From Bacteroides sp. (GTDB lineage Bacteria > Bacteroidota > Bacteroidia > Bacteroidales > Bacteroidaceae), in the NCBI GenBank assembly GCA_021201335.1, contig JAJQFD010000042.1, positions 186,001 through 250,000 on the forward strand: a stretch of DNA of 64,000 nucleotides, read 5' to 3'. This document shows, one piece after another, positions 10,404-31,286 of the stretch. Numbering within the stretch: the stretch's first letter is position 1; each line of letters starts with the position of its first letter. A program made the position numbers and the translations under genes. The notes under the pieces are model-generated. The model was not told where the DNA came from and ran no database searches. It was given only the letters and a program-made list of their open reading frames with translations.

Positions 10404-11237
10404 TTATTTTATGGCAACTGCTATCCGATCGTTGCCGTATAAATCTTTCCATATCTTCACTTCATGATAACCTGTCATTTGTAATAAAGTCATCACTTCA
10501 TTTCCATAAGCACGGTTTATCTCAAAATAAAGTTTTCCTTCCGGATTAAGCAATTCTTGGCCAAGTAAAGCTATTCTTTTATAAAAGCGAAGTGGGTCAT
10601 CGTTGGGCACAAACAAGGCTAAGCCTGGTTCCCAGTTTAGTACATTGGCTTCCATGTCTTCTTTTTCTTTTTCCGTAACATAAGGAGGATTACTTACAAT
10701 CAGATGAAACTTACGTTCTACCGGAAAAGATTCCATAATATCTTTTTTTACAAAATGCACGTTTGCATGTAATTGCCTACCATTCGACATTGCTATCTTC
10801 AAAGCTTCATCGGAGATATCCCAGGCTTCCACATATGCATCCGACAAATGGCGGGAAATAGAAACAGCTATACACCCACTTCCGGTACCGATATCCAGGA
10901 CACTTATTTTCCCTGTATTTTCTTTCAATATCCGTTCTACAAGTTCTTCCGTCTCCGGGCGCGGAATCAAGACTCCCGGTGCCACCTGAAAAGACAGTCC
11001 ATAAAAATCCGCACTGCCCCGGATATATTGTATGGGTTCCTTATTCTGCAAACGTTCGATAACACCAGTCAAAAGAATCTGTTGTTTCTCTGATAATTTT
11101 ATATCTTTGCTTAAATAAATATCCAATGGATTGATGTCTAGCATATCCCTACAGATAATCATAGAGAGGCTTTTGGTCTCTCCAGGGTCATAGATATGTT
11201 TTAAAGAATCCTGTATATAGGCAGTGATATGCTTCAT
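10404..11237 (-). CDS. prmC: Peptide chain release factor N5-glutamine methyltransferase
   Basis: Methylates the GGQ glutamine of release factors using SAM. The 277 residues contain the N-terminal helical domain, IQYIRGSADFYGL, VLIPRPETEELVE, the SAM-binding VLDIGTGSGCIAVSI and the catalytic VSNPPYV. Divergent from ribD with only 36 nt between start codons. Confidence 0.96.
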   Translation of the reverse strand: MKHITAYIQDSLKHIYDPGETKSLSMIICRDMLDINPLDIYLSKDIKLSEKQQILLTGVIERLQNKEPIQYIRGSADFYGLSFQVAPGVLIPRPETEELVERILKENTGKISVLDIGTGSGCIAVSISRHLSDAYVEAWDISDEALKIAMSNGRQLHANVHFVKKDIMESFPVERKFHLIVSNPPYVTEKEKEDMEANVLNWEPGLALFVPNDDPLRFYKRIALLGQELLNPEGKLYFEINRAYGNEVMTLLQMTGYHEVKIWKDLYGNDRIAVAIK

Positions 11238-11257
11238 GTCTCTTTATTTTCAAAACA

Positions 11258-11265
11258 CAAATATA
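11258..11265 (-). promoter_or_regulatory. -7 promoter box of prmC-recX
   Basis: The minus strand reads TATATTTG, 20 nt upstream of the prmC start. Any -33 element would fall inside the first codons of ribD; none is obvious. Confidence 0.5.
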
Positions 11266-11273
11266 TAAAATTC

Positions 11274-12311
11274 ATGAAAGAGGAAGAAATATACATGCGA
11301 CGCTGCATTCAGTTAGCAATGAATGGCAAGAACAATGTAGCACCTAATCCGATGGTAGGAGCCGTGATTGTTTATGATGGGAAAATCATGGGTGAAGGTT
11401 ACCATGTCAGATGTGGGGAAGCTCATGCGGAAGTAAATGCAATTCAAGCTGTAAAGAACCCGTCATTATTAAAACAATCGACCATGTATGTAAGCCTTGA
11501 ACCATGCTCTCATTATGGTAAAACGCCTCCATGTGCCGATCGGATAATTAAAGAAGGAATTCCTCGCGTTGTAATTGGTTGCCCGGACCCTTTCCTGAAA
11601 GTAGCCGGACGGGGTATTCAAAAGTTGAAAGATGCAGGAATTGATGTTACCGTTGGAATATTGGAAAAAGAATGCCGGCAGCTTATCTCCCATTTCGCAA
11701 TTTATAATACCCAACGCCGTCCTTATATCATTCTGAAATGGGCAGAGTCCGGTGATGGCTTCCTGGATATTACCCGCACAGAAGGTTATCCGGTAAAATT
11801 ATCTACCGACGAGACCAGAATGCTGGTACATAAAAAGAGAGCTGAAGCAGATGCCATTATGGTGGGCCCCCAAACGGCTATACTTGATAATCCATCGCTG
11901 ACTGTGCGAGACTGGTATGGTAAAAGTCCTGTCCGGGTAGTAGTGGATAAGCACCTGTCCTTACCGCCCTCTTTACATCTCTTCGATGGAACAATTCCGA
12001 CATGGATTTATACCATTAAAGAACAACCAAATGCGAGTAATCTTACTTACATCACCTTGAATCAAGAAGTTGATTTATTGCCCCAAATCATGGCTGATCT
12101 TTATGAACGGGGCATCCAAACCTTGCTGGTAGAAGGAGGTAGTAAACTATTGCAATCATTCCTTTATGACAGCTTATGGGACGAGATTTTCGTGGAAAAA
12201 TGCTACAAGAGGCTGGTCTCCGGTGTTAAAGCTCCTGAAATAAGCCCTAAAAATAGTTATTCTATTGAAAAACACTTTGGAGTGTATACTTATCACTATA
12301 TTCATGATTAA
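11274..12311 (+). CDS. ribD: Bifunctional riboflavin deaminase/reductase RibD
   Basis: Two-domain enzyme of riboflavin synthesis (pyrimidine deaminase then 5-amino-6-ribosylamino-uracil reductase). The N-terminal deaminase shows the zinc motifs HAEVNAI and EPCSHYGKTPPC. The C-terminal reductase shows GDGFLDITRTEG, ADAIMVGPQTAILDNPSLTVR and LLVEGGSKLLQSF. Start chosen at MKEEEIYM (345 aa); the longer frame from 11229 overlaps prmC and adds an atypical tail. No FMN riboswitch is recognisable in the 36-nt divergent gap. Confidence 0.95.
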   Translation: MKEEEIYMRRCIQLAMNGKNNVAPNPMVGAVIVYDGKIMGEGYHVRCGEAHAEVNAIQAVKNPSLLKQSTMYVSLEPCSHYGKTPPCADRIIKEGIPRVVIGCPDPFLKVAGRGIQKLKDAGIDVTVGILEKECRQLISHFAIYNTQRRPYIILKWAESGDGFLDITRTEGYPVKLSTDETRMLVHKKRAEADAIMVGPQTAILDNPSLTVRDWYGKSPVRVVVDKHLSLPPSLHLFDGTIPTWIYTIKEQPNASNLTYITLNQEVDLLPQIMADLYERGIQTLLVEGGSKLLQSFLYDSLWDEIFVEKCYKRLVSGVKAPEISPKNSYSIEKHFGVYTYHYIHD

Positions 12312-12683
12312 AGTAGTTTGCTTTCGATAAAAACATCAGACATAACATTTTAGCCTTATATTTTTAAAGATTCCCGTGGTTATATTCAATAAACGCACTA
12401 CCCTAAGGACAGAAGAGTGATTTCTTCCCGGAAATAGCCTGCAGCATATTTTAAATAAATAGATTGAAGAGAAATATAGTTACGATTGAAACTGTAAAAT
12501 GCGAATTATATGACATAGAAATCTCCTCAGATTCTCTGCTTAAAAACATAATTAAGCATTAATTTTGGTCGATAAAATTCCCAATATTATCTATAATTTT
12601 ATATAAAACTTGCTGTCAATATTCAATATAGAAAAAAATGTTCCTATTTTTACATCTTGTAAATCATCAGAATTATTATAGCA
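12312..12683. other. Intergenic region upstream of the DUF6242/uppS/bamA operon
   Basis: About 370 bp of AT-rich sequence without coding character. It must hold the promoter for the envelope operon; TTTTTACATCTTG at about 12645 only loosely resembles the -7 consensus. Nothing else identified. Confidence 0.5.
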
Positions 12684-14057
12684 ATGAGAATAAAGCTTTT
12701 ATCTACCCTGGCAGGTCTTTTTTTTGTTACACTTGCAGTCACATCGTGTCTCGACTCCGATAATAACAATGTAGAATATAGCTCGGATGACACAATTAAG
12801 GCTTTCCGGCTGGATACTATTTATGGCGTAAAATACAATTTTACTATTGACCAGATAAACAGGCGGATATTTAATGTAGACTCAGTACCCTTCAGCTCTG
12901 ATACCATTATTAACAAGATTCTGATTGACTCTTTATCCGTGAACGGATGGGTAACGATAGAGAAAAACGGACAGGATACTATCTTCACTTATACAACTGA
13001 TTCACTAGACTTTTCAAATACCATGCCTGATTTAGGAGGAACTCCGGTAAAATTGAAAGTGCATGCATATGATGGTGTAAACTCTCGTGAATATTCCATC
13101 GAAGTTCGTCGCCATCAACAGGAACCCGATTCGTTAGTATGGAGCACTCCGAGTCTCTCTTTCTCTCAGGGAAATGCCGATGGATTGCAAAAAACAATTA
13201 TTCTCAAGAATCAGTTAATTACTTATGTATCTAACCAAGTGGCTTATACAAGCAACTTGCCTTTCGGAAGCAGCTGGACCGTGCAATCTTTAAGCGGACT
13301 TTCCGAGGAAAATATAAAAATGACTTCTTTCCTTCTTTATAAGGACAAAATATATTGTGTGGCTGAAAGCGGTAAGGTATTTCAATCTCCCGACGGCCTC
13401 TCATGGCAGGAGGCGCCCATCAGCGGAAATGTAGTTGCGCTTATAGGAGCATTCCCTGATTACATCTCAGGACTTGTTATGGAAGAGGGAAAAACAAAAT
13501 TTGCTACAACAAATAGCAGCTTTAACGGATGGGACGCTGATAAGGAAATTCCGGCCACCTTTCCTACCGAAAACATTTCGATGGCTTCTTTCAAAACAAA
13601 TACAAACGAAGAAGTCTACAAGTATATTTTAATGGGTAAATCAACCGATAAAACACCAGGCAAAACGATACCTTGGTTTAGTTTTGACGGAAAACAATGG
13701 GCATCTCTGGCGACCGATATTTATTATTGTCCGGAAATGGAAATACCCACTATCATATATTATAATGAAACATTGTACGCTTTCGGAGGTGATTTCACGA
13801 AATTCTACACATCACAGGACCAGGGCCGTATCTGGAAGGGAATAGACAAAATGGTAATGTTTCCGGATAAATTCAGAGGCAGAAAAACCTACTCGACTGT
13901 AATTGATCCGGATAATTATATTTGGATTATCTGGAGTAAGGGTTTGGCAGAATACACTGAAACAGATGATGATGACGATGAAATAACGATAACTACGCCT
14001 TATGACGATGAAGTATGGAAAGGGCGTATCAACAGACTTGGTTTTCTGATAAAATAA
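12684..14057 (+). CDS. DUF6242-type lipoprotein heading the uppS-bamA operon
   Basis: A 457-residue exported lipoprotein: signal peptide 1-21 with lipobox VTSC (Cys22), then an N-terminal Ig-like domain (about 37-142, ending in the YSIEVRRHQ strand) and a C-terminal region with beta-propeller/sialidase-like blades (SWTVQSLSG, VFQSPDGLSWQEAP, FYTSQDQGRIWKGID). A run of acidic residues (TETDDDDDEI) lies near the C-terminus. The architecture matches DUF6242 lipoproteins of Bacteroidales. The stop codon is 3 nt before the uppS start, so it is translationally close to essential envelope genes. Function unknown. Confidence 0.85.
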   Translation: MRIKLLSTLAGLFFVTLAVTSCLDSDNNNVEYSSDDTIKAFRLDTIYGVKYNFTIDQINRRIFNVDSVPFSSDTIINKILIDSLSVNGWVTIEKNGQDTIFTYTTDSLDFSNTMPDLGGTPVKLKVHAYDGVNSREYSIEVRRHQQEPDSLVWSTPSLSFSQGNADGLQKTIILKNQLITYVSNQVAYTSNLPFGSSWTVQSLSGLSEENIKMTSFLLYKDKIYCVAESGKVFQSPDGLSWQEAPISGNVVALIGAFPDYISGLVMEEGKTKFATTNSSFNGWDADKEIPATFPTENISMASFKTNTNEEVYKYILMGKSTDKTPGKTIPWFSFDGKQWASLATDIYYCPEMEIPTIIYYNETLYAFGGDFTKFYTSQDQGRIWKGIDKMVMFPDKFRGRKTYSTVIDPDNYIWIIWSKGLAEYTETDDDDDEITITTPYDDEVWKGRINRLGFLIK

Positions 14058-19994: not shown

Positions 19995-20178
19995 CACTGC
20001 ATAAGTTCCCGGACTTAGGCAGCGCAAGTACAAAGATTGGGGCTGCGTAAGTCTGCGGATTGGGGCTGCGTAAGTCTGCGGACTTGGGCTGCGCAAAAAG
20101 AAAGACTTAAGCAGCGCAAATCCGGGAACTTAGGCTGCGCAAGAATGAAGATTGGGGCTACGCAAGTTCTTACGACCC
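19995..20178. repeat. 23-bp tandem repeat array (about 8 units)
   Basis: Cores of 11 nt (consensus ggctgcgcaag) recur exactly every 23 nt at 20018, 20041, 20064, 20087, 20110, 20133 and 20156, with a degenerate first copy at about 19995. Each core is followed by a variable hexamer (tacaaa, tctgcg twice, aagaaa, tccggg, aatgaa, ttctta) and then a semi-conserved gattgg or gactta. It is much more GC-rich than its flanks. It sits between the convergent ends of the DUF2007 gene and the SARP-like regulator. Confidence 0.9.
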
Positions 20179-20196
20179 AAATATGCTAATCATGAT

Positions 20197-21708
20197 TTAC
20201 GATTTATTACTCTTCATCATCTCAGAGAACGATACAACATACGGAGTTCCATACATACTCTCATAATCCTTTACGAACCGATTATAGCTTATATTAGCCA
20301 TCGAACGTTTACCCATATTCGTCAAAGCAATGCATTTTATAGCCAATGCATTTTCATTCAGCGAATCCAAATTAAATATAGTATCCGCAATCTGCACCAG
20401 CAGTTTATTATCGCCCATAATATTCGGAAGTTTTGCCAAATTAAGAAGGTTGTCAATCAACTTATCCGATACTTCTGCTTTAAACGGATCGAGCCACTCG
20501 TAATTACTTTCGGGCAGGAAAGCACCCCGCCGAACTATGGCCACCAGCTCCAGAATTTGTTCCTTATTCAGACTCTCATGACTGAGCAGGGATATTATCC
20601 TGATATAATCACAATAAATATCATCTTTAAATTCAATCCTTATATTATGAGGATTGGAGATAATCTCATATCCTCCTACCGTATCCAGAATTCCTTTTAG
20701 TTTTCCGATATTCACTGCCCTATTATTGTTGGCACTTTGCTGTTCTTTATCAAACCACAGGATATCTTTGAGTAATCCAGTACTAATACCTTTACTGTTT
20801 TTCTGAGAATATAGCAATAATAGAAGGAATAACTCTTTCAGCAACGGAGTGAAACGGAAAGAGATATCCTTTCCCTCTTTATCCAACACCTCAAACTGTT
20901 TAAACAAAAAAATAGCACTTCTGTCCCTCTTAATAATTTCGTCGAGATCAATTTCCGGATAAAATATAATATCTTCATCCCCGGGTTCCTTCTCATTATC
21001 CATCTCTTCAGCTTGCCGTAATTTTTTCTGTTTCCTTTTTTGTATAATGATATAAGCAAAAATAAAAATATCCAGAACAACAATGATAATAATCCAGAGT
21101 AAGATAGAATTCTCTCCTTGTTCGGTCTTTTTTTGTTCCAATAGATCGGGATCTGAAGAGATATTTGACAATTTCAGGGAAGAGGTGATACTCTGATTGC
21201 CTCTATTACTATTCTTGAGCGTTCCTAATGTTATTTTGTAATCGGTATGGGGTTTTAGCCCTAAACGGTTCTCGATTAAAACAGTGTCTCTAACTCCAAT
21301 GGTTAGCTGATCTGATTTCAAATCTATAAGGAAGTTAAATGGTATAAATGTTTTCTGTAATTCATCCTTCGTAATACCAACAGTACGCCGCGAAAGTTTA
21401 TCTTTAGATATGATTAGTAATTCGCTGGGTGTATCATCTTGGATGCTTAATATAACATTCACCTCTTGTTTATTGATATCAACTATACGAACCAGGTATT
21501 CGAGATATTCCTCATACCCTTTTTGTATGGAAACATCGAATGACAACTTAATATCGTTATTGAATCTGAAGAAATGGTTTTTATTTAATCCAACGCCAGA
21601 TAAATAGGGAGGAGACGTCGGGGTAACTTCATCCTGTGCAAGAATGCTTAAGCTAACCGACGATATAATTGAAAAAAATAAAAGGCGAAGTATGTATCTA
21701 TCAAACAT
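20197..21708 (-). CDS. Membrane-spanning SARP-like transcriptional regulator
   Basis: A 503-residue one-component regulator. Layout: signal peptide (1-24), periplasmic beta-rich sensor domain (about 35-185, lectin-like pattern FSFDVSI-type strands), one transmembrane helix (201-222), basic juxtamembrane linker, an OmpR/SARP-like winged helix (about 265-372; FRFTPLLKELFLLLLLYSQ and NNNRAVNIGKLKGILDTVGG) and a C-terminal BTAD/TPR-like helical domain (about 375-485). It reads as a protein that senses a ligand outside and binds DNA inside. It is divergent from the LRR/iadA cluster, the obvious target. The domain assignments are by pattern; the sensor ligand is unknown. Confidence 0.8.
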   Translation of the reverse strand: MFDRYILRLLFFSIISSVSLSILAQDEVTPTSPPYLSGVGLNKNHFFRFNNDIKLSFDVSIQKGYEEYLEYLVRIVDINKQEVNVILSIQDDTPSELLIISKDKLSRRTVGITKDELQKTFIPFNFLIDLKSDQLTIGVRDTVLIENRLGLKPHTDYKITLGTLKNSNRGNQSITSSLKLSNISSDPDLLEQKKTEQGENSILLWIIIIVVLDIFIFAYIIIQKRKQKKLRQAEEMDNEKEPGDEDIIFYPEIDLDEIIKRDRSAIFLFKQFEVLDKEGKDISFRFTPLLKELFLLLLLYSQKNSKGISTGLLKDILWFDKEQQSANNNRAVNIGKLKGILDTVGGYEIISNPHNIRIEFKDDIYCDYIRIISLLSHESLNKEQILELVAIVRRGAFLPESNYEWLDPFKAEVSDKLIDNLLNLAKLPNIMGDNKLLVQIADTIFNLDSLNENALAIKCIALTNMGKRSMANISYNRFVKDYESMYGTPYVVSFSEMMKSNKS

Positions 21709-21859
21709 AATAATGGGGACTATGCATTACATAACAATATTAGCACAAAAAAATGGTTTTAACACAATCTTTTTATAATTATACCGATAATATCTCTTAA
21801 AAAACCTCCGTTAATATCCTTGTTCACGATTTATTAAGGACTCTGTTTATGGCGGGATT

Positions 21860-21867
21860 TATATTTG
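21860..21867 (+). promoter_or_regulatory. -7 promoter box of the LRR-iadA-porin cluster
   Basis: TATATTTG, with no TTG at the usual -33 spacing, as expected for an activator-dependent promoter. The start site would fall near 21873, leaving a leader of about 20 nt to the ATG at 21894 and excluding the more upstream ATG at 21849. Confidence 0.5.
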
Positions 21868-21893
21868 TGACTAAAATTAAAACAAATAATACC

Positions 21894-23729
21894 ATGAAAA
21901 AGAATCTTACCTATCACTTACTATTAATGGCTTTGGTCGGTCTGTTTATCACTGCATGTTCGACCAACGATGTGGACTTACCCGACCCTAGCGGAGTCGA
22001 TGACAATTATGCAATAACCGATGAGGCATTTGGGGAATACTTATATTACTTAGGAGCTGCCGGAGTAAAGAAAATGAGAGAGAGTATCGACGGCACTGAG
22101 GTTAACAAATATTATATTGATACGGACTTAGCATTAAAACAGACAGAACCATTAAATCTGAGTAAATCGGCAAACGCTATAAAAACATTGGAAACTGCCG
22201 GAGTAGAGACTGCAACTATTAAGATTAAAAATGTAGATGGTTTGCAGCATTTTATCAATGTTACGGGTATTACTCTTACCTCCAACGAAGTAGAAAGTAT
22301 TGACCTGACAAAGCTGACTAAACTGGAAACACTCAATCTTAATAATAATTTTATAGGTTCCCTGGATCTGACTAATAATATAGCACTTACTACCCTAAGC
22401 TATACAGCAAGTAGTAAAGCAACAGAAAGTCAAAAACTGACAACAATTGATTTGTCGAAAAATACTAAGCTGACATCTGTCGATCTTTCCAATCATACCG
22501 GAGCGCCCTTTCCTATTCCTTCTGCGATCTTTAATCAACTCACAACCGCCAAAGGCGTGAAAGCAGAAGATACAACAGGCGATTACAAAATAGCTGATGA
22601 AGCATTGGGAGAATATCTTCTTTATTTAAAGGTGGCAGGGGTTAAAGAAACTGTGGATAATAGTTCTGGAACTGCCGTTTACTCCTATTATATTGATACA
22701 GAAGCGGCTAAAGCGCAAACAGGGGAACTAAACCTGAGTAAATCTGCCAATTCCATTAAAACATTAACAAGCGCAGGGTTGAGAACCGCTGAAGACAAAA
22801 TAAAGAGTATAGACGGTCTTCAATACCTTATTAATATTACAGGTCTGGTATTAACCTCCAACGAAGTACAAAGCATTGACCTGAGTGAATTAACCAAATT
22901 GGAAACACTTAACCTGAACAATAACTTCATTGGTTCCCTGGATCTGACTAAAAACACAGAACTGACTACCTTATCGTACACAGCAAGTTCTAAAGCCACT
23001 GAAAGCCAAAAGCTGACAACTATTGATTTGTCCAGAAACACCAAACTGACATCTGTAGATCTCTCCAACCATACCGGAGCACCCTTTACTATTCCTACTG
23101 CCATTTTTAATCAACTGACAACTGCAAAGGGAGTAAAAGCCGAAGATGAAAACGAAAGCAAAGATTACGCAATAGCTGATGAAGCTTTCGGTGAATATCT
23201 CTATTACCTGAAAGTAGCCGGAGTAAAAGAAGTAGTAGACAATAGTTCGGGAACAGCCGTATACAAATATTATATAGATACGGAGGCAGCCAAGACTCAA
23301 ACCGGTGAACTGAACCTGAGTAAATCGGCCAATTCAATCAAAACATTAACGAGTGCAGGCGTCAGAACTGCTGACACCAAAATAAAAAGTGTTGATGGTC
23401 TTCAGTACCTGATTAATATTACAGGTCTGGTACTAACCTCCAACGAAGTAGAAAGCATTGACCTGACCGGATTAAGCAAACTGGAAACGCTTAACCTAAA
23501 TAATAACTTCATCGGCTCGTTAGACCTGACTAAAAACACGGAGCTTAAAACGCTTTCATATACAGCGAGTTCAAAAGCTACAGATAGCCAGAAACTGACA
23601 GCCATCGACCTGTCGAAGAATACGAAACTCACTTCGGTAGATCTTTCCAATCATACCGGAGCACCATTTTCCATTCCGGCAGCCATCTTTAATAATCTTA
23701 CTACAGCGAAGGGCGTAGTTTCAGCATAA
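21894..23729 (+). CDS. Lipoprotein with three tandem 193-194-residue LRR-containing repeats
   Basis: A 611-residue lipoprotein: signal peptide with lipobox FITAC, a short linker, then three tandem copies starting at about 22002, 22581 and 23163. Each copy begins AIADEAFGEYLYYLKVAGVK-like, continues through YYIDT and LNLSKSAN, and contains a short leucine-rich stretch (LTSNEVESIDL, LETLNLNNNFIGSLDL, LTTIDLSKNTKLTSVDLSNH) ending IFNQLTTAKGV. Copies are close at the protein level but differ at many synonymous sites. Start chosen at MKKNLTYH, which gives a proper signal peptide and lies downstream of the -7 box; an upstream ATG at 21849 does not. Likely surface binding protein; ligand unknown. 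Confidence 0.85.
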   Translation: MKKNLTYHLLLMALVGLFITACSTNDVDLPDPSGVDDNYAITDEAFGEYLYYLGAAGVKKMRESIDGTEVNKYYIDTDLALKQTEPLNLSKSANAIKTLETAGVETATIKIKNVDGLQHFINVTGITLTSNEVESIDLTKLTKLETLNLNNNFIGSLDLTNNIALTTLSYTASSKATESQKLTTIDLSKNTKLTSVDLSNHTGAPFPIPSAIFNQLTTAKGVKAEDTTGDYKIADEALGEYLLYLKVAGVKETVDNSSGTAVYSYYIDTEAAKAQTGELNLSKSANSIKTLTSAGLRTAEDKIKSIDGLQYLINITGLVLTSNEVQSIDLSELTKLETLNLNNNFIGSLDLTKNTELTTLSYTASSKATESQKLTTIDLSRNTKLTSVDLSNHTGAPFTIPTAIFNQLTTAKGVKAEDENESKDYAIADEAFGEYLYYLKVAGVKEVVDNSSGTAVYKYYIDTEAAKTQTGELNLSKSANSIKTLTSAGVRTADTKIKSVDGLQYLINITGLVLTSNEVESIDLTGLSKLETLNLNNNFIGSLDLTKNTELKTLSYTASSKATDSQKLTAIDLSKNTKLTSVDLSNHTGAPFSIPAAIFNNLTTAKGVVSA

Positions 23730-23744
23730 CCTAAACTTATAATT

Positions 23745-25115
23745 ATGACAATAGTAGGAATAATAATATCCTTGCAATTTATAATCATTGCAGCCTATCT
23801 TTTATTTAAGAAGTACCATCCACAGGCTGTGTTAATGATTTGCGGACTAATGATGGTGGGCATTGGTATGTTGATGAACTTCTCTATACCCGAACTTAAT
23901 GAAAGTACAGGTTCTTCCTTCTTCGACCTTTTCCGCCGGATTCAGGAATCGATGATCGGACGTCTGTCGGGTGTAGGGCTCATGATCATGGCAATCGGCG
24001 GATTCGTTTCTTATATGAAACACATAGGAGCCAGCGAAGCCCTGGTGTATATTTCGATGCAACCCTTATCCGTCATGAAGAAATATCCATACCTGGCATC
24101 TATTCTTGTAATTCCTATCGGGCAGCTTCTTTTCATCTGTACGCCGTCGGCAACAGGATTGGGATTGCTGTTAGTGGCGTCAATTTATCCTGTATTGGTC
24201 GGATTGGGTGTAAGCCGGTTAACAGCCGTCTCGGTTATTTCGGCCTGTACGGTATTCGATATGGGACCTGCGTCCGCTAATACTGCCCGGGCAGCAGAGC
24301 TTATTGGAAAAAGCAATGTTGCTTACTTCATAGAAGATCAATTGCCTGTAACGATTCCGGCTACTATCGTGCTGATGATAATTTATTATTTTACGAACAG
24401 ATATTTCGACAAAAAGGAGAAACAAGAAAAAGAAATAGTAAAGAAGGAAGATTTTAAACTGACTGCTCCTCTTATCTATGCAATCTTACCCATATTACCG
24501 TTGATACTATTAATTATCTTCTCCCGGTTCATCGAATTATTCCCCAATAATCCGATCATTCTGGATACTACAACGGCTATATTCATTTCCGTAACAGTTG
24601 CTTTTGTCTTCGAAATAATACGCAAGCGTAAGATGAAAGAGGTATTTGCTTCCCTCAAGGTTTTCTGGGAAGGAATGGGTAAAGTTTTCGCAACGGTAAT
24701 AACATTGATTGTTGCAGCAGAAATATTCTCTACCGGATTAATCAGTCTAGGCTTTATCGACGGATTGGTAGATATATCTACTCATCTTGGATTAGGCGCT
24801 GTGGGTATAGGAATTCTGATAGCAGTAATTATCTTTCTTGCCTCTATGCTTATGGGTAGCGGAAATGCGTCGTTCTTCTCTTTTGGTCCGTTAGTTCCTG
24901 ATATTGCCACCAGGCTTGGAGTAAAAGCCGCGGATATGATATTGCCGATGCAATTGGCATCAAGCATGGGACGGGCTACCTCTCCTATTGCCGGTATTAT
25001 AGTGGCTATCTCAGAAATAGCCGGAGTATCTGCCTTCGACCTGGCCAAACGAAATCTAATACCATTAGTCGTAGGACTAATCTTTATACTTGTGTACCAC
25101 TTCATATTTATTTAA
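23745..25115 (+). CDS. DcuC-family C4-dicarboxylate / amino acid carrier
   Basis: A 456-residue inner-membrane carrier with about 12 hydrophobic segments and the DcuC/YfcC-type elements CTPSATGLGLLLVASIYPVL, ACTVFDMGPASANTARAAEL and the C-terminal LMGSGNASFFSFGPLVPDIA. Relatives move C4-dicarboxylates, aspartate or peptides. It is 15 nt after the lipoprotein gene and precedes iadA, so the transported solute is probably aspartate or an isoaspartyl peptide or, alternatively, exported succinate or fumarate formed from aspartate. Confidence 0.85.
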   Translation: MTIVGIIISLQFIIIAAYLLFKKYHPQAVLMICGLMMVGIGMLMNFSIPELNESTGSSFFDLFRRIQESMIGRLSGVGLMIMAIGGFVSYMKHIGASEALVYISMQPLSVMKKYPYLASILVIPIGQLLFICTPSATGLGLLLVASIYPVLVGLGVSRLTAVSVISACTVFDMGPASANTARAAELIGKSNVAYFIEDQLPVTIPATIVLMIIYYFTNRYFDKKEKQEKEIVKKEDFKLTAPLIYAILPILPLILLIIFSRFIELFPNNPIILDTTTAIFISVTVAFVFEIIRKRKMKEVFASLKVFWEGMGKVFATVITLIVAAEIFSTGLISLGFIDGLVDISTHLGLGAVGIGILIAVIIFLASMLMGSGNASFFSFGPLVPDIATRLGVKAADMILPMQLASSMGRATSPIAGIIVAISEIAGVSAFDLAKRNLIPLVVGLIFILVYHFIFI

Positions 25116-25128
25116 AACACAAAAGAAG

Positions 25129-26274
25129 ATGATGAAAATAATAAGAAACGCCGATATATATGCACCCAGTTACGTGGGTCACAAGGACATACTGATAGGT
25201 GCCGGTAAGATCTTAATGATCGATGATAAGATCGACATGAATGCCTCCCACATTAAGAGTATTGATGCGGAGGGAAAAATGGTATTCCCCGGATTTATCG
25301 ACCAGCATATACACGTCACTGGTGCAGGAGGCCAAACCGGATACGCTTCTATGACACCTCCTATCGAACTGAGTGAACTTATTGCCTGCGGTACAACTAC
25401 GGTAATGGGACTGCTAGGTACTGATGGTACAACCAAAAGCCTACAGAACCTTTATGCTAAAATACAGGGATTGGAGCAGGAAGGCATATCTACCTACATG
25501 CTAACCAATTACTTTGCATACCCTCCCATCACAATCACCGGAGATGTACGGCAGGATATTATGTTTATTGATAAAGTGATAGGATGCAAAATCGCTATCA
25601 GCGACGAACGTTCTTCGGCACCGGATGCTAAAGAACTCTTACGCTTGTTAGGAGACATACAAGTTGCAGGATTATTATCCCAAAAGAAAGCCATACTGCA
25701 TGTACATTTAGGAGGACAGAAATCGGGAATGGCTTTATTACTGGAATTAGTTGAAAAATACCAGGCTCCCGTCCGCCGAATATCCCCTACTCATGTAGGA
25801 CGTACCCGCGCCTTATTTGAGGAAGCCATTCGCTTTGCCAAATTAGGAGGAATGATCGATATTTCCACCGGAGGCACCAAATTCGACGAACCGTACAAAC
25901 AAGTACTATTAGCCTTAGAGCAGGGTGTTTCCATAGATAATATGACATTAAGCAGTGATGGAAACGCCGGAGTAATGATAAAAGATGAGGAAGGCACTAT
26001 TGTAGGCTACCGAAAGGCCCCTATCGATCTTAATTTCAAGCAAGTCGTAAAATTAGTAACCAATGGCGGAGTAGATGCGGCTGAAGCATTCAAACTTATA
26101 ACCAGTAGTCCGGCCCGTAATTTATCATTGCCTCATAAAGGTACAATTGCCGTAGGTAATGATGCTGATTTTTGTTTCCTGGACAAAGATTATACACTCT
26201 ATGATGTTATGGCAAAAGGAGAACTGATGATGAAAGATAAAGTGATCCTGAAGAAAGGTACGTATGAAAAATAA
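25129..26274 (+). CDS. iadA: Isoaspartyl dipeptidase
   Basis: Zinc amidohydrolase that cleaves beta-linked (isoaspartyl) dipeptides, releasing aspartate. The 382 residues show the metal ligands in order: DQHIHVTGAGGQ, the ILHVHLGGQKSGMALLLELVE segment, ISPTHVGRTRALFEEAI, and LSSDGNAG with the catalytic Asp. Start at MMKIIRNAD (25129 or the next Met 25132); the longer frame from 25090 overlaps the carrier gene and is unlikely. No signal peptide, so it is cytosolic and the substrate must be imported. Confidence 0.94.
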   Translation: MMKIIRNADIYAPSYVGHKDILIGAGKILMIDDKIDMNASHIKSIDAEGKMVFPGFIDQHIHVTGAGGQTGYASMTPPIELSELIACGTTTVMGLLGTDGTTKSLQNLYAKIQGLEQEGISTYMLTNYFAYPPITITGDVRQDIMFIDKVIGCKIAISDERSSAPDAKELLRLLGDIQVAGLLSQKKAILHVHLGGQKSGMALLLELVEKYQAPVRRISPTHVGRTRALFEEAIRFAKLGGMIDISTGGTKFDEPYKQVLLALEQGVSIDNMTLSSDGNAGVMIKDEEGTIVGYRKAPIDLNFKQVVKLVTNGGVDAAEAFKLITSSPARNLSLPHKGTIAVGNDADFCFLDKDYTLYDVMAKGELMMKDKVILKKGTYEK

Positions 26275-26289
26275 TAAATCTAATAGATT

Positions 26290-27591
26290 ATGAAACATGT
26301 AACAACAACATTATTCCTGTTACTATTGCTTCTTCCTGCTAGTTCATTCGCTCAAAGTGGAGTCACCTTCAATAAATACACAATGGGCGAAGGTATTACT
26401 ATGAAGTCCAATAATGACAGTTATAGTATAAATCTGCGTGGGTTTTTACAAACACAAACCGACACGCGCATTTATGAAGGAGGAGAAGATGATTATCACA
26501 ATCGCTTCCGCATCCGGAGAGCCCGTCTTCGCCTATCAGGTGATGCGTTCAGTAAAAAGATTAGCTATGTTCTGGCCGCCGATTTCTCCGAATCATTGGC
26601 TGGAGAAGATGAAGCTAACAGCATTCTGAAAGATGCCTATATAAGATATAGCCCGACATCCAACTGGAATATTACCCTGGGACAAAGATCTCTGGGAACA
26701 GATAGCCGCGAGATGACTATTGGCTCAAACTCTCTCGCTTTTGTAGACAGAAGTAAACTTTCATCTGCATTTAGCACTATCCGTGAAGTGGGATTGTTTG
26801 TGGAAGGAACCGTAAGAGTGGGAAATAGTTCATTACTACGTCCTTCTCTGATTATTACTGACGGAGATGGTAGCTTTTCCAAAGGCAAACGCACAGGTGG
26901 TCTTAAGTATGGCGGACGTATTAATTATCTTCCTTTCGGACGTTTCCGTGAATTTGGAGAGTTCCGTGGAGCTGATCTGGTCAGGGAGTTAACCCCCAAA
27001 CTATCCATAGGAGCCGCATTCAGTTATAACAATGCTACCAGCGACCGCCGTGGTGGACGAACTACTGGTTCAATCATGTACCTGGATGAAAACGAAGAAC
27101 CGGCTTTGCCATCTTACAGCAAATTTGTAGCCGACTTTATTTTCAAATACAGAGGACTTTCTGTTCTGGGAGAGTTTGCGAAAACATGGTCAAGCGTTCC
27201 GGATGATATCATGTATCGGGTACGCAACGATGGTACATTGGCGACAACATTCGAAGGAGGAATCGATGAGTATGTGAAAGGACGTATGATGCTCGGTTCC
27301 GGATATAACATCGAAGCATCCTATCTTTTTCCTTCACTGTATCTGGTAGGAGTAAGATATACACATCTCAAACCCGATAAAGTTTCGCATATGCATAATA
27401 CACTCTATAATAATCGTCGCAACTTTTACGAAATATCCGCAGCTAAGTATCTGACCCGTTCGCATTCTGTAAAGATACAAGCATCTTTTATCTATGCCGA
27501 TGCGCGTGAAGGAAGCCGTAATCTATTGGGGAATGATATGGAAAACAAAAATGAGATGATATTTCAGACTCTTTTGCAAGTTTCATTTTAA
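26290..27591 (+). CDS. Phosphate-selective porin O/P family outer membrane protein (1)
   Basis: A 433-residue porin: signal peptide ending SSFAQ, then the OprO/OprP layout NLRGFLQTQTDTRIYEG, NRFRIRRARLRLSGDAFSKK, VLAADFSE, and RSLGTDSREMTIGSNSLAFVDR. It ends in ...VSF with a terminal Phe as expected for BAM substrates. These are 16-strand trimeric anion channels; in Bacteroidetes they are not necessarily phosphate-specific. Here, between iadA and an M14 peptidase, an anionic peptide is a plausible solute. Confidence 0.88.
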   Translation: MKHVTTTLFLLLLLLPASSFAQSGVTFNKYTMGEGITMKSNNDSYSINLRGFLQTQTDTRIYEGGEDDYHNRFRIRRARLRLSGDAFSKKISYVLAADFSESLAGEDEANSILKDAYIRYSPTSNWNITLGQRSLGTDSREMTIGSNSLAFVDRSKLSSAFSTIREVGLFVEGTVRVGNSSLLRPSLIITDGDGSFSKGKRTGGLKYGGRINYLPFGRFREFGEFRGADLVRELTPKLSIGAAFSYNNATSDRRGGRTTGSIMYLDENEEPALPSYSKFVADFIFKYRGLSVLGEFAKTWSSVPDDIMYRVRNDGTLATTFEGGIDEYVKGRMMLGSGYNIEASYLFPSLYLVGVRYTHLKPDKVSHMHNTLYNNRRNFYEISAAKYLTRSHSVKIQASFIYADAREGSRNLLGNDMENKNEMIFQTLLQVSF

Positions 27592-27603
27592 CAACGTAAT
27601 ACT

Positions 27604-29120
27604 ATGATGAGACTAAAAATACTTTGTACACTGTTTTGCCTGACATCAGTAGTTATGGCTCAGCAACCCAGCAAAATGATTGAAAAGTTCTTCCCATCAC
27701 CTATGGTGGAGATAAATACACCTTCTTTCCAAAAAAGAGGTTACGTGAAATATGAGGAACTTATAAAATATGTGGAGAATACCATTGCAGGGAAAGATTA
27801 CATAGCCTTGCAGTACATTGGTAAAACCCAGAAAGGCAAAGATATTCCCGCAGTTATCTTCAGGAAATCGAAGAATGCAAAATCAAAGGTTATGTTCACT
27901 GGACGCGTTCACGGAGATGAGCCCGGAAGTACAGAAGCATTACTGTATCTGATTGACAGACTGATTAATGACCCTAACCTCTCCTACCTGGTAGATAACT
28001 TGGAAATTGCCATTCTGCCCATGGTAAATATAGATGGTGGGGATAAACTCAGAAGACAATCGGCTAATGGCCTCGATCTGAACAGGGACATGAGCAAACT
28101 GGCAACCCCCGAGAACCAAGCGTTACGCAAGTTCTTCAATGAGTTTGCACCGGATGTAGAATTAGATCTTCACGAATACAACCCCCTACGTGCTGACTAC
28201 ATGAAATTTGGAAAGTTTGGTGTCTCAGGTTACGCAGATGTGATGTTCTTGTATTGCGAAAACCCGAACTATCAAAAGCCCTTGCGTGAGTTTGTTAGTG
28301 GAACTTATCTGCCCTTGTTGGAAAATGCCTTGGATAAAGACAAACTTACTTATTGGAAATACTTCACATCCAGTAATCAAAATGGCGAAGTGCATTTGAA
28401 TATGGGTGGGGGTAGTCCACGCTCCTCTGCAACAGCCTTCGGATTAGCCAATACCGTTTCTTTACTGATAGAAGTAAGAGGTACTAATATTGGTAAAGCC
28501 AACTTTAAACGGAGAGTCTATACCGGCTATCAGATAGCCCTCACTACATTGAAGATGGCAGATGAAAAAACATCGGAAATTAAAGCAGCTATACGTCAGT
28601 CCACTGAATCAAATGCAGACATCGTAGTTACACAACGCCGGATTGAAGAACTTAGAACTATACCTTTTATTGATATCCATAAGAATGAACTAATAGATGT
28701 GGAAATCCCTGTACGGGATGCCGGACAACGAAAAAAGGTATCGTACGAAAAAGACCTTTTGCGTATGCCCTGTTGCCAAACCAGACGTTGTTAGCGGATA
28801 AGCTACGGGATTTAGGTATATCCGTAGAAGTACTGGATACGGACCGGAATCTGGATGTAGAATCTTATACCATAAGCGATTACAGAGAAAGTGAAGAAAA
28901 GTTTGAAGGATTTTACGAGCAGATAGTCAAGACTAAAGTCTCTTCTAAAAAAATGGTTTTACCTAGAGGTTCTTTCATCGTAAAGATGAATCAGCGAAAT
29001 AGCAACCTGGCGGCTATGGTCTTAGAACCCGAGGCCGAAAACGGATTCGTCCGCTATCAGGTTCTACCTGTCCAACAGGATGAAGAACTACCTATCTATC
29101 GGATAACTAATACCTATTAA
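27604..29120 (+). CDS. M14 zinc carboxypeptidase, reading frame interrupted by a -1 shift
   Basis: The first frame (27604-28794) has a signal peptide (ends VVMAQ) and an intact M14 catalytic domain: zinc ligands His103/Glu106 (GRVHGDEPG) and His190 (ELDLHEYN), substrate Arg161 (LDLNRDM) and catalytic Glu290 (LLIEVRGTN). It terminates in junk after about residue 380. Homologous sequence resumes in the -1 frame (KRPFAYALLPNQTLLADKL...), continuing to 29120. The switch region contains A AAA AAG in the zero frame at 28731-28737 followed by a hairpin at 28744-28765, so the product could be made by programmed frameshifting. Alternatives are a one-base deletion in either poly-A run or a sequencing error. 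The catalytic part is intact either way. Confidence 0.85.
28731..28765 (+). promoter_or_regulatory. Candidate -1 ribosomal frameshift site
   Basis: Slippery heptamer A AAA AAG in the zero frame (28731-28737), a 6-nt spacer, then a stem 28744-28752 with 28757-28765 (4 bp, an A-G mismatch, 4 bp; loop gacc; extendable downward by c28742-g28767 and a g-t pair). A -1 slip here leads exactly into the downstream frame of the carboxypeptidase. Confidence 0.45.
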
Positions 29121-29146
29121 ATCGAAAAACATAAAACAATATAATT

Positions 29147-30367
29147 ATGAAAAGAATATATATACTATGTATTTCCATCCTGATGGCAGGAGGAATTTTC
29201 GCCCAGGGAAAATCTCATGGTAAAGCAGATTTCAGATTGGGAAATGGCCTTGATATACAACTAAATGATGGCGACTACTCCTTCAATCTGGGAGGATTTA
29301 TACAAGCCGGAGCACAATATCGGAAAGACGAAGGCTCTAAAGCAGAAAACCGTTTTGATATCAAATATGGTTATCTCTCATTGGGAGGAAATGCAAAGAA
29401 AGAAAAAGTAAGCTTCTTACTACAACTTGATTTCGCAGATAGCAAACCCTTATTGGATGCCTGGATAGCGTATAAACCCATAAAGTTCCTAACCATAAGT
29501 GCAGGACAAAAGCAAACCTTTACCAACAACCGGGAAATGACATTCATGGAAAACAGACTGTCTATGGTTGATCGAAGTGTGATGAGCCGTAACTTATCTG
29601 CCACTGGGCGTGAACTGGGATTGTTCCTGGAAAGTGAATTCTTACTAGGAAATGTGGGGATCTTACCTCAGGTTGCCGTAACTACCGGAGACGGACGTAA
29701 TTCATTCGGTGCAGGTTCTACGGATGTTGATAAAGGAGGATTGAAATACGGAGCCCGTTTGGATATATGTCCACTAGGAATGTTCACAGAAGGAAACGAT
29801 AAAATAGGTGCAGACCTTGCCCATGAAACAACTCCGAAAATCAAAGTCGGAATAGCTGGAAGTTATAATTCGGGAGTAAGTAATGCTATGGGAGAAGGTC
29901 ATGGAGATTTTGCTATGTATGATGCAGAAGGAAAAGAAAAACTTCCTGATTACCGGAAACTATATGCTGATATTATGTTCAAATACCGGGGATTTTCTTT
30001 GTTAGGTGAATATGGTAATACATCGGCTACTCGCTTAAAAGGAATATACACGGCGGCCAATGGAACGGGAGAACTTCTGCCCGGTGATATTAGTTCTTAT
30101 CTGTATCTGGGCGACAGTTACAACATTCAAATGGGCTATGCGCTTCACAATGGTTTTGCGTTAGATCTTCGCTTTACTAAGATCAAACCTGAATTCGAAG
30201 ACAAGGTTTCTGCTTTAAAAGATATGAATGCTTATGATGTAACCCTTACCAAATATTTTGTGGATAACCGGTTAAAGATACAAGGCGGTTTCTCTTACCT
30301 GGATTATAAAGCAAGCAACATAAGAAATCATATACAGGCAGAGGTTTTACTACAGGTAGTATTTTAA
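29147..30367 (+). CDS. Phosphate-selective porin O/P family outer membrane protein (2)
   Basis: A 406-residue paralogue of the porin at 26290: signal peptide ending GGIFAQ, then FNLGGFIQAGAQYRKDEGS, FDIKYGYLSLGGNAKKEK, QKQTFTNNREMTFMENRLSMVDRS and a C-terminal strand ending in VVF. Same operon, 26 nt after the M14 gene. The two paralogues differ enough to suggest separate solutes or a stepwise uptake role. Confidence 0.88.
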   Translation: MKRIYILCISILMAGGIFAQGKSHGKADFRLGNGLDIQLNDGDYSFNLGGFIQAGAQYRKDEGSKAENRFDIKYGYLSLGGNAKKEKVSFLLQLDFADSKPLLDAWIAYKPIKFLTISAGQKQTFTNNREMTFMENRLSMVDRSVMSRNLSATGRELGLFLESEFLLGNVGILPQVAVTTGDGRNSFGAGSTDVDKGGLKYGARLDICPLGMFTEGNDKIGADLAHETTPKIKVGIAGSYNSGVSNAMGEGHGDFAMYDAEGKEKLPDYRKLYADIMFKYRGFSLLGEYGNTSATRLKGIYTAANGTGELLPGDISSYLYLGDSYNIQMGYALHNGFALDLRFTKIKPEFEDKVSALKDMNAYDVTLTKYFVDNRLKIQGGFSYLDYKASNIRNHIQAEVLLQVVF

Positions 30368-30395
30368 ATTAAGAACTCAATCAATTCGATAAAAA

Positions 30396-31286
30396 ATGAA
30401 ATATATGTTTCATGCTATGTTGTGCTCCCTCGTGCTATTATTCTCCTGTAGCAGTGATGGTGATGATATAAACCCCGAGGGAGCAATAACAAATGGCAAT
30501 GGCAAATTTGAATACAGTTTATATGCTCCTCTGAAAGATAAGCCCGTAAACATCTATTATTCAATTAGCGAGGGAGATATGTCTGCCATGCCGATCCTAT
30601 TTGTTCTTCCCGGCACTAACAGGGATGCGGACAATTACATTCGCCCGTGGAGTAGTATCACGAAAGAACACAAGTGCATGGTATTTGCTATTGAATTCCC
30701 GGAAGAATATTATTCTGATAACGAATACATAACGGGTAATGTAATTGATAGATCGGGAAAGTTCGTGGATAAGGACAAATGGACTTTCTCTATCATAGAA
30801 GCTTTATTTGGATATATAAAATCAGAAACGGGAAACAAGAGCACATTGTACAATCTATTTGGTCATTCGGCCGGATCTCAGTTCGTGCATCGGTATGTGT
30901 TGTTCAATCCGAATGCGAAAATTGATAAGGCAGTAACTGCAAATGCCGGATGGTACACAATGCCATTGTTTAATGTGGAATTTCCGTATGGATTAAAGAA
31001 TACGCAACTTTCGAGAACAGATGTAGCTGCTGCCTGTAAAGTCAACTTAACTGTTCATCTCGGAGAGGCAGATAATGATCCGAATGATTCATCGCTCCGC
31101 AAGACACCGGAAGCCATGGTACAGGGTGCTCACCGCTATGCCAGAGGACAGTATTTCTATAACAACAGTATGTCAATGGCCGAAACCAGTGATTTCCAAT
31201 TCAACTGGACAATGCGGAAAGTCCCCAATGTAGGTCACGACCAGGTTGCCATGGCAAAGGATGCGGCTAAGATATTCTTTGAATAG
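30396..31286 (+). CDS. Alpha/beta-hydrolase fold lipoprotein
   Basis: A 296-residue lipoprotein (lipobox FSCS, Cys18) with an alpha/beta-hydrolase domain: MPILFVLPGTNRDADNY near the oxyanion region, nucleophile elbow FGHSAGS, a candidate acidic residue in the LGEADNDPN segment, and the catalytic His in NVGHDQVA near the C-terminus. It could be an esterase or peptidase facing the periplasm or the cell surface. Last gene of the cluster (28 nt after porin 2), followed by a large hairpin. Confidence 0.82.
   Translation: MKYMFHAMLCSLVLLFSCSSDGDDINPEGAITNGNGKFEYSLYAPLKDKPVNIYYSISEGDMSAMPILFVLPGTNRDADNYIRPWSSITKEHKCMVFAIEFPEEYYSDNEYITGNVIDRSGKFVDKDKWTFSIIEALFGYIKSETGNKSTLYNLFGHSAGSQFVHRYVLFNPNAKIDKAVTANAGWYTMPLFNVEFPYGLKNTQLSRTDVAAACKVNLTVHLGEADNDPNDSSLRKTPEAMVQGAHRYARGQYFYNNSMSMAETSDFQFNWTMRKVPNVGHDQVAMAKDAAKIFFE

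What the first reader, a model, noticed from the sequence alone, without database searches (positions are those of the whole stretch)
20197..31286. Possible isoaspartyl/acidic-peptide utilisation locus built on anion porins
A divergent membrane-spanning regulator faces seven tightly spaced genes: triple-repeat LRR lipoprotein, DcuC-type carrier, iadA, porin O/P, M14 carboxypeptidase, second porin O/P, alpha/beta-hydrolase lipoprotein. Gaps are about 12-28 nt. IadA is known to cleave beta-aspartyl dipeptides. Porin O/P proteins are anion channels. The combination suggests surface binding, anion-porin entry, periplasmic trimming by the M14 and hydrolase enzymes, inner-membrane uptake by the DcuC carrier, and cytosolic IadA cleavage. 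Candidate substrates are isoaspartyl peptides from aged proteins or cyanophycin-like polymers. There is no SusC/D pair. The pathway is inference; gene content is seen.
Basis: partly seen in the sequence, partly recalled or inferred. Interest (0 to 1): 0.72.

Follow-up and report, generated by a model that had tools for sequence, protein, structure and literature searches.

The report
Likely polyaspartate-eating gene cluster
A Bacteroidales bacterium carries an eight-gene set, apparently moved between bacterial families, that looks built to digest and import an acidic chain of aspartate-like units; its intracellular 'isoaspartyl dipeptidase' lacks a residue that a studied enzyme of that family needs, so the real food molecule is probably not the textbook one.

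Summary
The gene order is real; one correction is that the M14 gene is frameshifted here (an intact near-identical protein exists). The "alpha/beta-hydrolase lipoprotein" is a homologue of poly(aspartic acid) hydrolase-1 (PahZ1; E 4.6e-65), a beta-amide polyaspartate depolymerase. DcuC-IadA-PorA-M14-PorB plus PahZ1 recurs across Bacteroidia: among 158 same-genus genomes all 20 with IadA also have the PahZ1 homologue (21 have it). In 15 relatives SusC/SusD replaces the porins and surface protein, and PahZ1 and M14 are one fused protein. The cassette sits between murI and proB (295-1538 bp apart in 10 relatives, 11,982 here) and is closest to Dysgonomonas, another family: horizontal transfer. 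All 33 locus IadAs carry Gln/Lys where studied enzymes have the glutamate that binds the substrate's alpha-amino group, and Gly for Ser/Cys289; seven unlinked IadAs keep the usual residues. That Glu-to-Gln change abolished activity in Colwellia IadA. Best reading: utilisation of a beta-linked aspartate-type polyanion, with an IadA subfamily of changed specificity (acylated, D- or non-amino substrate). No activity is shown.

The parts
20197..21708 (-). Divergent membrane-anchored SARP/AfsR-like one-component regulator: periplasmic jelly-roll-like domain, one long membrane helix, winged-helix plus helical repeat
   Evidence: AF2 model pLDDT 82.0, pTM 0.49; Foldseek top hit AfsR 8hvr_I, E 8.6e-6, most other top-50 hits galectin/LamG/PL7-like folds over about 150-190 columns; some homologues called 'DNA-binding SARP family' by sources; no Pfam hit
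21860..21867 (+). Probable -7 promoter element TATATTTG of the operon
   Evidence: TAnnTTTG 34 nt before ATG 21894; same at -35 in L008 and L009; promoter type recalled
21894..23729 (+). Lipoprotein with three about 193-aa LRR units (candidate polymer binder at the surface)
   Evidence: LRR_4 5e-16; repeats; lipobox then CSTNDVD; LTD/Calx-beta proteins in this position in L082, L084, L086
23745..25115 (+). DcuC-family C4-dicarboxylate carrier
   Evidence: PF03606 1.9e-75; NF037994 392.4 bits against cut-off 100
25132..26274 (+). IadA-family metallo-amidohydrolase, diverged subfamily: Gln at Ec77, Phe at Ec137, Gly at Ec289
   Evidence: TIGR01975 365.5 bits against cut-off 331.25; PDB matches; residue tables; tree
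26290..27591 (+). Porin O/P-type outer-membrane protein (PorA)
   Evidence: PF07396 5.5e-12; signal peptide by eye
27604..29120 (+). M14 zinc carboxypeptidase, probably periplasmic, frameshifted: pieces 27604-28794 and 28773-29120; catalytic motifs lie in the first piece
   Evidence: PF00246 5.9e-18; intact relatives L008, L009, P0122; L009 model pLDDT 93.7 matches carboxypeptidase T; motifs
29147..30367 (+). Second porin (PorB), homologous to PorA
   Evidence: 36% to PorA over about 400 aa; no Pfam hit
30396..31286 (+). PahZ1-like alpha/beta-hydrolase lipoprotein, probably surface-exposed (CSSDGDD after the lipobox)
   Evidence: Poly(aspartic acid) hydrolase-1 9o7u 4.6e-65 and 6ve6 9.6e-56; Ser158/Asp226/His281 by alignment; export-signal consensus in PMC5080379 (passages)

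Best explanation
A horizontally acquired utilisation locus for a beta-linked aspartate-type polyanion (poly- or oligo-beta-aspartate or a close analogue). Proposed steps, all inferred from families: the surface LRR lipoprotein binds the chain; the surface PahZ1-like enzyme cuts internal beta-amide bonds; short oligoanions pass the two O/P porins; the M14 enzyme trims them in the periplasm; DcuC takes up the small dicarboxylate products; the IadA-family enzyme finishes them in the cytosol. Its amino-group pocket is rebuilt, so its substrate is probably not a free L-isoaspartyl dipeptide but one with an acylated, D-configured or absent alpha-amino group. The divergent SARP-like regulator senses ligand in the periplasm. 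Shown here: gene content, linkage, module swap, residue changes, cassette insertion. Not shown: any activity or substrate.
For: PahZ1 homology; Ser, Asp and His kept in 34 of 35 aligned domains in register, the 35th (L051) with Asp one column off in a gapped stretch. PahZ1 of Pedobacter cuts beta- but not alpha-Asp bonds, needs a trimer and leaves dimers (PMC4456602, parts 1-2 of 4 read), so a dimer enzyme is the expected next step. IadA genomes are all PahZ1 genomes in the genus set: 20 of 20, PahZ1 in 21 of 158, Fisher 1.9e-24, not corrected for relatedness. DcuC-IadA-PorA-M14-PorB has the same order in 15 of 17 listed porin-type loci, the other two cut by contig ends; two fragmentary loci (L053, L056) were left out. 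In 15 of 15 SusC/D-type loci PahZ1 and M14 are one polypeptide. Localisation fits by eye: most porin-type PahZ1 look like lipoproteins, most fused ones like ordinary secreted proteins. Dicarboxylate carriers of two more families lie beside the module in 7 of 7 neighbours that I picked by size and tested. Residues: Ec77 Q (21) or K (12) and Ec289 G in 33 of 33; E and S/C in 7 of 7 unlinked. Transfer.
Against: No activity is shown. The hydrolase family also contains esterase-type proteins (LpqC 1.1e-37; weak sub-cut-off PHB depolymerase matches for L084), so a polyester is possible. The IadA changes match inactivating mutations and could mean another reaction; they may trace to one ancestral event, since the locus IadAs are one clade and 6 of the 7 unlinked comparators are of the other metal-site type (Glu at Ec162; only Photobacterium has Lys). 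The M14 gene is broken in this assembly. G850 has the DcuC-IadA-porin-M14 core but no PahZ1 hit genome-wide, and G798 has it on another contig. PahZ1-like genes often occur without IadA: 15 of 19 genomes in the phylum sample. No natural beta-polyaspartate is known to me (recalled).
Confidence: 0.55

Rival explanations
1. Scavenging of ordinary L-isoaspartyl dipeptides or peptides from aged proteins; the IadA keeps canonical activity despite the Glu77 change.
For: Scores above the curated IadA cut-off; Lys162, Thr106, Arg169 and Arg233 kept in 33 of 33 and the metal-binding His/Asp by eye; a canonical IadA sits next to a DcuC in Photobacterium (L157); [quoted passage not shown]
Against: Glu77 is Q/K in 33 of 33 and Ser/Cys289 is G in 33 of 33; E80Q was inactive on beta-Asp-Leu in Colwellia IadA; a PahZ1-like polymer hydrolase accompanies the core in nearly all genomes.
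Confidence: 0.15
2. Poly(beta-malate) or another C4-dicarboxylate polyester utilisation: the PahZ1-like enzyme acts as an esterase, the IadA-like enzyme on hydroxy-acid dimers, DcuC/DASS/DctA-like carriers on malate.
For: Gln/Lys suits a hydroxyl in place of an ammonium (inference); LpqC/PHB-depolymerase kinship; C4-dicarboxylate-type carriers; an ORF read by eye as malic enzyme directly follows the cassette in L008 and L009.
Against: MocR (GntR-aminotransferase) regulators, a PLP-dependent amine-sensing type (recalled), stand by the module in 5 of 5 loci picked by size and tested; the one scored by NCBIfam (L149) passes the PdxR cut-off, so it may sense PLP itself. Type C locus L098 pairs PahZ1 with a tripeptidase-like M20 and an oligopeptide-transporter-like protein; a peptidase M14 accompanies the core.
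Confidence: 0.15
3. Cyanophycin or beta-Asp-Arg/Lys utilisation.
For: M14/AstE-like enzymes can be cyanophycin dipeptide hydrolases and IadA can finish cyanophycin breakdown (PMC10206079, passages); the M14 domain of the type B fusions also hits AstE_AspA_cat.
Against: No cyanophycinase in the locus; the M14 model fits carboxypeptidase T best; porins, DcuC and dicarboxylate carriers suit anions rather than Asp-Arg (inference); the canonical IadA pocket is lost.
Confidence: 0.04
4. Degradation of D-isoaspartyl cross-links from other bacteria's peptidoglycan (recalled from lactobacilli and enterococci).
For: Would explain a D-adapted IadA pocket and a gut setting (inference).
Against: No peptidoglycan amidase or glycosidase among the window's locus genes; PahZ1 of Pedobacter needs three linked Asp units.
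Confidence: 0.05

Closest known systems
Poly(aspartic acid) hydrolase-1 (PahZ1; PDB 9o7u, 6ve6)
   Same: Sequence homology over almost the whole protein (E 4.6e-65); Ser/Asp/His positions kept
   Different: Here a lipoprotein in an operon, or fused to M14 in relatives; its activity is untested
Isoaspartyl dipeptidase IadA (E. coli 1onw; Colwellia 5xgw; Leucothrix LmIadA of PMC10206079)
   Same: Fold family, metal-site Lys162, Arg169/Arg233/Thr106
   Different: Glu77 to Gln/Lys, Ser/Cys289 to Gly, Tyr137 to Phe in 6 of 33 including the window; separate clade at 100/99 support, 31 of the 33 in the tree
SusC/SusD-type utilisation loci (PULs) of Bacteroidota
   Same: Membrane regulator, surface lipoprotein, outer-membrane import and degradative enzymes; 15 relatives have true SusC/D
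   Different: The window uses two O/P porins and an LRR lipoprotein; peptidase-type enzymes, no glycosidase
Cyanophycin degradation clusters (cyanophycinase with IadA, IaaA or M14-type hydrolase; PMC10206079, passages)
   Same: IadA and M14-type enzymes cluster
   Different: No cyanophycinase in the locus; PahZ1 instead; anion import

Membership tests
PahZ1 (poly(Asp) hydrolase-1) | Sequence homology to characterised PahZ1 | tested here: met
   9o7u 4.6e-65, 6ve6 9.6e-56
PahZ1 (poly(Asp) hydrolase-1) | Ser-Asp-His residues of the fold (assigned by me from alignment) | tested here: met
   Window yes; 34 of 35 domains in register, one with Asp a column off
PahZ1 (poly(Asp) hydrolase-1) | Endo-cleavage of beta-Asp-Asp bonds | not testable with these tools
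   needs an assay
IadA (canonical isoaspartyl dipeptidase) | Curated family score and metal ligands | tested here: met
   TIGR01975 365.5 against 331.25; Lys162 in 33 of 33; HxH, His201, His230, Asp285 by eye in the alignment
IadA (canonical isoaspartyl dipeptidase) | Glu77 that binds the substrate alpha-amino group | tested here: not met
   Gln in the window; Q or K in 33 of 33 locus members; role from PMC5517026 section 17
IadA (canonical isoaspartyl dipeptidase) | Catalytic Tyr137 | tested here: not met
   Phe in the window and 5 other loci; Tyr in 27 of 33
SusC/SusD utilisation locus | SusC/SusD pair | tested here: not met
   Absent from the window locus; present in 15 relatives with the same core
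Porin O/P | PF07396 match | tested here: met
   PorA 5.5e-12; PorB only by homology to PorA
Porin O/P | Anion selectivity | not testable with these tools
   needs conductance measurements
M14 zinc carboxypeptidase | HxxE...His zinc motif, Asn-Arg, Tyr and catalytic Glu | tested here: met
   All in the first piece; 23 of 23 rows, 5 of them type B out of 15; reading frame broken afterwards
SARP/AfsR-type regulator | SARP-like DNA-binding and helical-repeat fold | tested here: inconclusive
   Foldseek top hit 8hvr_I 8.6e-6 but TM 0.34 (query) and 0.59 (target), rmsd 5.8; no Pfam hit; source names agree
Cyanophycin degradation cluster | Cyanophycinase gene | tested here: not met
   None in the locus; rest of the genome not tested

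The most novel reading that the evidence does not exclude
The locus marks a natural beta-linked (possibly L/D-mixed) aspartate-type polymer in guts and other habitats, and an IadA subfamily that has become a D-isoaspartyl (or acyl-isoaspartyl) hydrolase. With a D-unit the alpha-amino and alpha-carboxylate groups swap places, which would explain Glu77 to Gln/Lys together with Ser289 to Gly. It also fits PahZ1, reported to prefer cutting L|D (PMC4456602), which would leave beta-D-Asp-L-Asp dimers. This geometry is inference, not modelled.
Probability: 0.22. Interest if true: 0.85.

Novelty: new variant of a known kind. Interest (0 to 1): 0.66.

Why it matters
In the one PahZ1 paper read here the enzyme is described as a degrader of a man-made polymer; this gives its family a recurrent natural gene setting with transporters, partner enzymes and regulators, and makes the natural substrate testable. 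It shows one catabolic core served by two different outer-membrane import modules (porins or SusC/D), with the depolymerase apparently at the surface in one and periplasmic in the other, and it flags a whole IadA subfamily that scores as beta-aspartyl-peptidase although a residue needed in a studied member is missing.

Tried and rejected
That the window is a Dysgonomonas genome (my first guess from the 88% IadA match) was rejected: BamA is 74-83% to 12 same-genus genomes but 60% to both Dysgonomonas, ArgF 85-92% to 7 same-genus genomes against 78-79%, and a genome with the same contig stretch as Dysgonomonas sp. 511 (G994; L154 equals L008) is placed in another family of the same order. The genus itself I could not name.

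GC anomaly as a sign of transfer: none (locus 0.400, window 0.403). Promoter/terminator scan: no excess over shuffles. Plasmid records: 32 with IadA, 8 with the hydrolase; I looked at three regions, none carried the locus, and the residues of the other IadA records were not read. The FAD oxidoreductase beside MocR in L149 as a D-aspartate oxidase: not supported, no PDB sequence hit at 1e-8 and no NCBIfam match over cut-off. The M20 of type C as PahZ2: PDB hits are headed by peptidase T/tripeptidase; no entry named PahZ2 appeared. Literature: 'PahZ1' gave one relevant paper (PMC4456602); the listings showed no report of a PahZ1-IadA locus; most subscription papers are not held, so absence from print is not shown.

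Dropped before counts: L154 (the same stretch as L008), the interrupted hydrolase of G270, IadA of G269 (its contig starts inside PorB), fragment loci L053 and L056 in the order count, and L109 and L153 in the tree. L109 (G270) is counted among the 33 locus IadAs although its own contig neighbours were not read; the rest of that locus is on another contig (L056). L149 is counted as a locus IadA though its genome has no PahZ1 hit. Fisher values ignore relatedness. The tree tool warned of long branches among the comparators.
Full report
1. What is there. The listed genes are present: a regulator on the minus strand (20197-21708), then LRR lipoprotein, DcuC, IadA-family enzyme, porin A, M14, porin B and an alpha/beta-hydrolase lipoprotein on the plus strand, with gaps of 15, 16, 15, 12, 26 and 28 nt. 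The M14 reading frame is lost near 28.73 kb, so two ORFs cover it; the zinc and catalytic motifs lie in the first piece. An intact 505-aa protein in the database (P0122) is identical over the first 376 residues and at 114 of the last 115, and intact copies exist in L008 and L009. A TAnnTTTG element lies at -34/-35 before the LRR start codon in the window, L008 and L009.

2. What the hydrolase is. The 'alpha/beta-hydrolase lipoprotein' has no Pfam hit, but its best PDB matches are poly(aspartic acid) hydrolase-1, 9o7u (4.6e-65) and 6ve6 (9.6e-56), ahead of LpqC (1.1e-37). Ser158, Asp226 and His281, which I take as the triad from the alignment, are kept in 34 of 35 homologous domains in register and in the 35th with Asp one column off. 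In PMC4456602 (I read parts 1 and 2 of 4) PahZ1 of Pedobacter cuts beta- but not alpha-linked Asp trimers, prefers L|D, and does not cut beta-Asp-Asp dimers.

3. Linkage. In the 158-genome genus set IadA (E <= 1e-40) is in 20 genomes and the hydrolase (E <= 1e-5) in 21; all 20 are shared (Fisher 1.9e-24, not corrected for relatedness). In 19 of the 20 the two genes lie in one cluster on one contig; in G270 they are on different contigs of a 510-contig assembly. In the family sample 1 of 151 has IadA, the window's own. In the phylum sample (395) IadA is in 9 and the hydrolase (E <= 1e-15) in 19; four genomes have both: the window's and three in which the hydrolase lies within about 10 kb of the core. 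The other five IadAs (35-38% identical) have no hydrolase hit in the genome at E <= 1e-10, and 15 of the 19 hydrolase genomes have no IadA hit. In the class sample (395) IadA is in 11, one of them apparently Dysgonomonas sp. 511; 10 of the 11 have a hydrolase; G850 has none and G798 has it on another contig.

4. Two import modules. Type A (window, L008, L009, L044, L052, L054, L055 and, with other surface lipoproteins or an LRR-Calx-LTD protein, L082, L084, L086, L146-L151, L153) has DcuC-IadA-PorA-M14-PorB in that order in 15 of 17, cut by contig ends in L147 and L153. Type B (15 loci: L043, L045-L051, L057-L062, L152) has SusC-SusD-DcuC-IadA and one fused hydrolase::M14 protein of 778-1014 aa, with SusC and SusD matched by BLAST in 15 of 15 (Pfam on L049 alone); SusC is partial in L061. 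A DUF6377 regulator-like gene is found in 11 of 15; in L057 a FecR gene lies there instead (Pfam), and L043 and L152 have genes of similar size, not tested. In type A most hydrolase N-termini look like lipoproteins with acidic residues after the cysteine, near the export signals of PMC5080379 (passages); in type B most look like ordinary signal peptides (by eye, no signal predictor was run). So digestion at the surface seems to go with porins, and digestion in the periplasm with SusC/D. In the IadA tree type B is nested within the same-genus type A copies. Type C (L093, L097, L098) has the hydrolase and M14 without IadA; in L098 they sit with a TonB receptor, an M20 peptidase, NhaC and an oligopeptide-transporter-like protein, and the hydrolase has a type IX sorting tail.

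5. Neighbours. I picked neighbours by size and scanned them. In type A loci of other families a DASS sodium/anion symporter gene follows the hydrolase in five of five (L086, L148, L150, L151, L153), a SDF-family (DctA/GltP-like, below the NCBIfam cut-offs) gene follows PorB in two of two (L146, L149), and MocR-type regulators stand beside the module in five of five (L084, L086, L148, L149, L151). The L149 regulator passes the NCBIfam PdxR cut-off (331.8 against 320).

6. The IadA problem. The enzyme passes the curated IadA cut-off and keeps Lys162, Thr106, Arg169 and Arg233 (33 of 33) and, by eye, the other metal ligands. But the position of E. coli Glu77 is Gln in 21 and Lys in 12 of 33 locus enzymes, and Ser/Cys289 is Gly in 33 of 33; all 7 unlinked IadAs examined (five Bacteroidota, Acetoanaerobium, Photobacterium) have Glu and Ser/Cys (Fisher 5.4e-8, not corrected for relatedness). 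Caution: six of the seven comparators have Glu at position 162 and so are of the other IadA type; only Photobacterium has Lys like the locus enzymes, and the change may have arisen once. The window, L008, L009, L044, L084 and L109 also have Phe at Tyr137. In Colwellia IadA (PMC5517026, sections 17 and 20 read) the matching Glu80 and a Thr bind the alpha-amino nitrogen (atom N11), Cys297 the oxygen O13 (the alpha-carboxylate, as I read it), and two Arg the atoms O01 and O04; E80Q had no activity on beta-Asp-Leu and Y140F under 10%. The locus enzymes (31 of 33 in the tree) fall on one side of a branch with 100/99 support. So the side of the pocket that reads a free N-terminal beta-aspartyl unit is rebuilt, while the arginines are kept. 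I infer an acylated, D-configured or non-amino unit.

7. Horizontal transfer. The eight proteins are 70-96% identical to Dysgonomonas copies (DcuC 94-96%, IadA 88%) but 30-71% to same-genus type A copies (M14 was compared through the L009 protein). BamA shows the opposite: 74-83% to 12 same-genus genomes, 60% to both Dysgonomonas; ArgF likewise, 85-92% to 7 against 78-79%. The window IadA groups with Dysgonomonas at 100/100. In 10 of 12 same-genus relatives inspected murI and proB matches are 295-1538 bp apart; in two proB was not in the stretch; in the window the gap is 11,982 bp. Direction and date of the transfer are not shown.

8. Regulator. The AF2 model (pLDDT 82.0, pTM 0.49) gives an N-terminal beta-sandwich, one long helix across the predicted membrane segment and a C-terminal part whose top Foldseek hit is the SARP regulator AfsR. 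Many homologues match only about half to two thirds of the query and carry a Kelch/galactose-oxidase-like region instead.

9. Verdict. An unusual, conserved and transferable locus, most likely for a beta-linked aspartate-type polyanion. Substrate and chemistry are inference; the gene linkage, module swap, cassette insertion and residue changes are shown.

Noticed in passing
window 20010-20167: GC-rich 23-nt repeat array (GACTTAGGCTGCGCAAGT-like) between the small ORF after murI and the regulator; the core GGCTGCGCAA is absent from 14 relatives' stretches.
   Followed up: partly
L093, L097, L098: Type C loci: PahZ1-like plus M14 without IadA; in L098 also a TonB receptor, M20 peptidase, NhaC and oligopeptide-transporter-like protein, the hydrolase with a type IX secretion tail.
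   Followed up: partly
L008 16086-18407, L009 16292-18574: An ORF read by eye as malic enzyme directly follows the cassette in both Dysgonomonas genomes.
   Followed up: no
L056 and L109 (G270), L044 15133-16507: Interrupted copies: G270 has split M14, PorB and regulator ORFs and a TGA inside IadA and the hydrolase (a 510-contig, 79% complete assembly); DcuC of L044 is in two pieces.
   Followed up: no
L157 4941-7603 (Photobacterium sp. DA100 plasmid): A canonical IadA (Glu77) followed 11 nt later by a DcuC-family gene, so the IadA-DcuC pair exists without PahZ1 nearby.
   Followed up: no
L147 2954-4081, L149 13935-15062: FAD-dependent oxidoreductase (DAO family in L149) of unclear specificity; in L149 it follows the MocR regulator gene.
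   Followed up: partly
L082 1597-3324 and 16944-17906: G343 has two PahZ1-like genes around one core, one with about 300 extra N-terminal residues.
   Followed up: no
P0266-P0360: Large family of Bacteroidota proteins, many joining Kelch/galactose-oxidase-like domains to the SARP-like part of this regulator.
   Followed up: no
L062 12472-14517: GH97 gene 3 nt after the fused hydrolase::M14 gene; an ORF of similar size follows in L061.
   Followed up: no
L049 protein 10413-13439, residues about 290-500: Middle domain of the type B fusion weakly matches DUF4886 and PDB 4s1p; function unknown.
   Followed up: no
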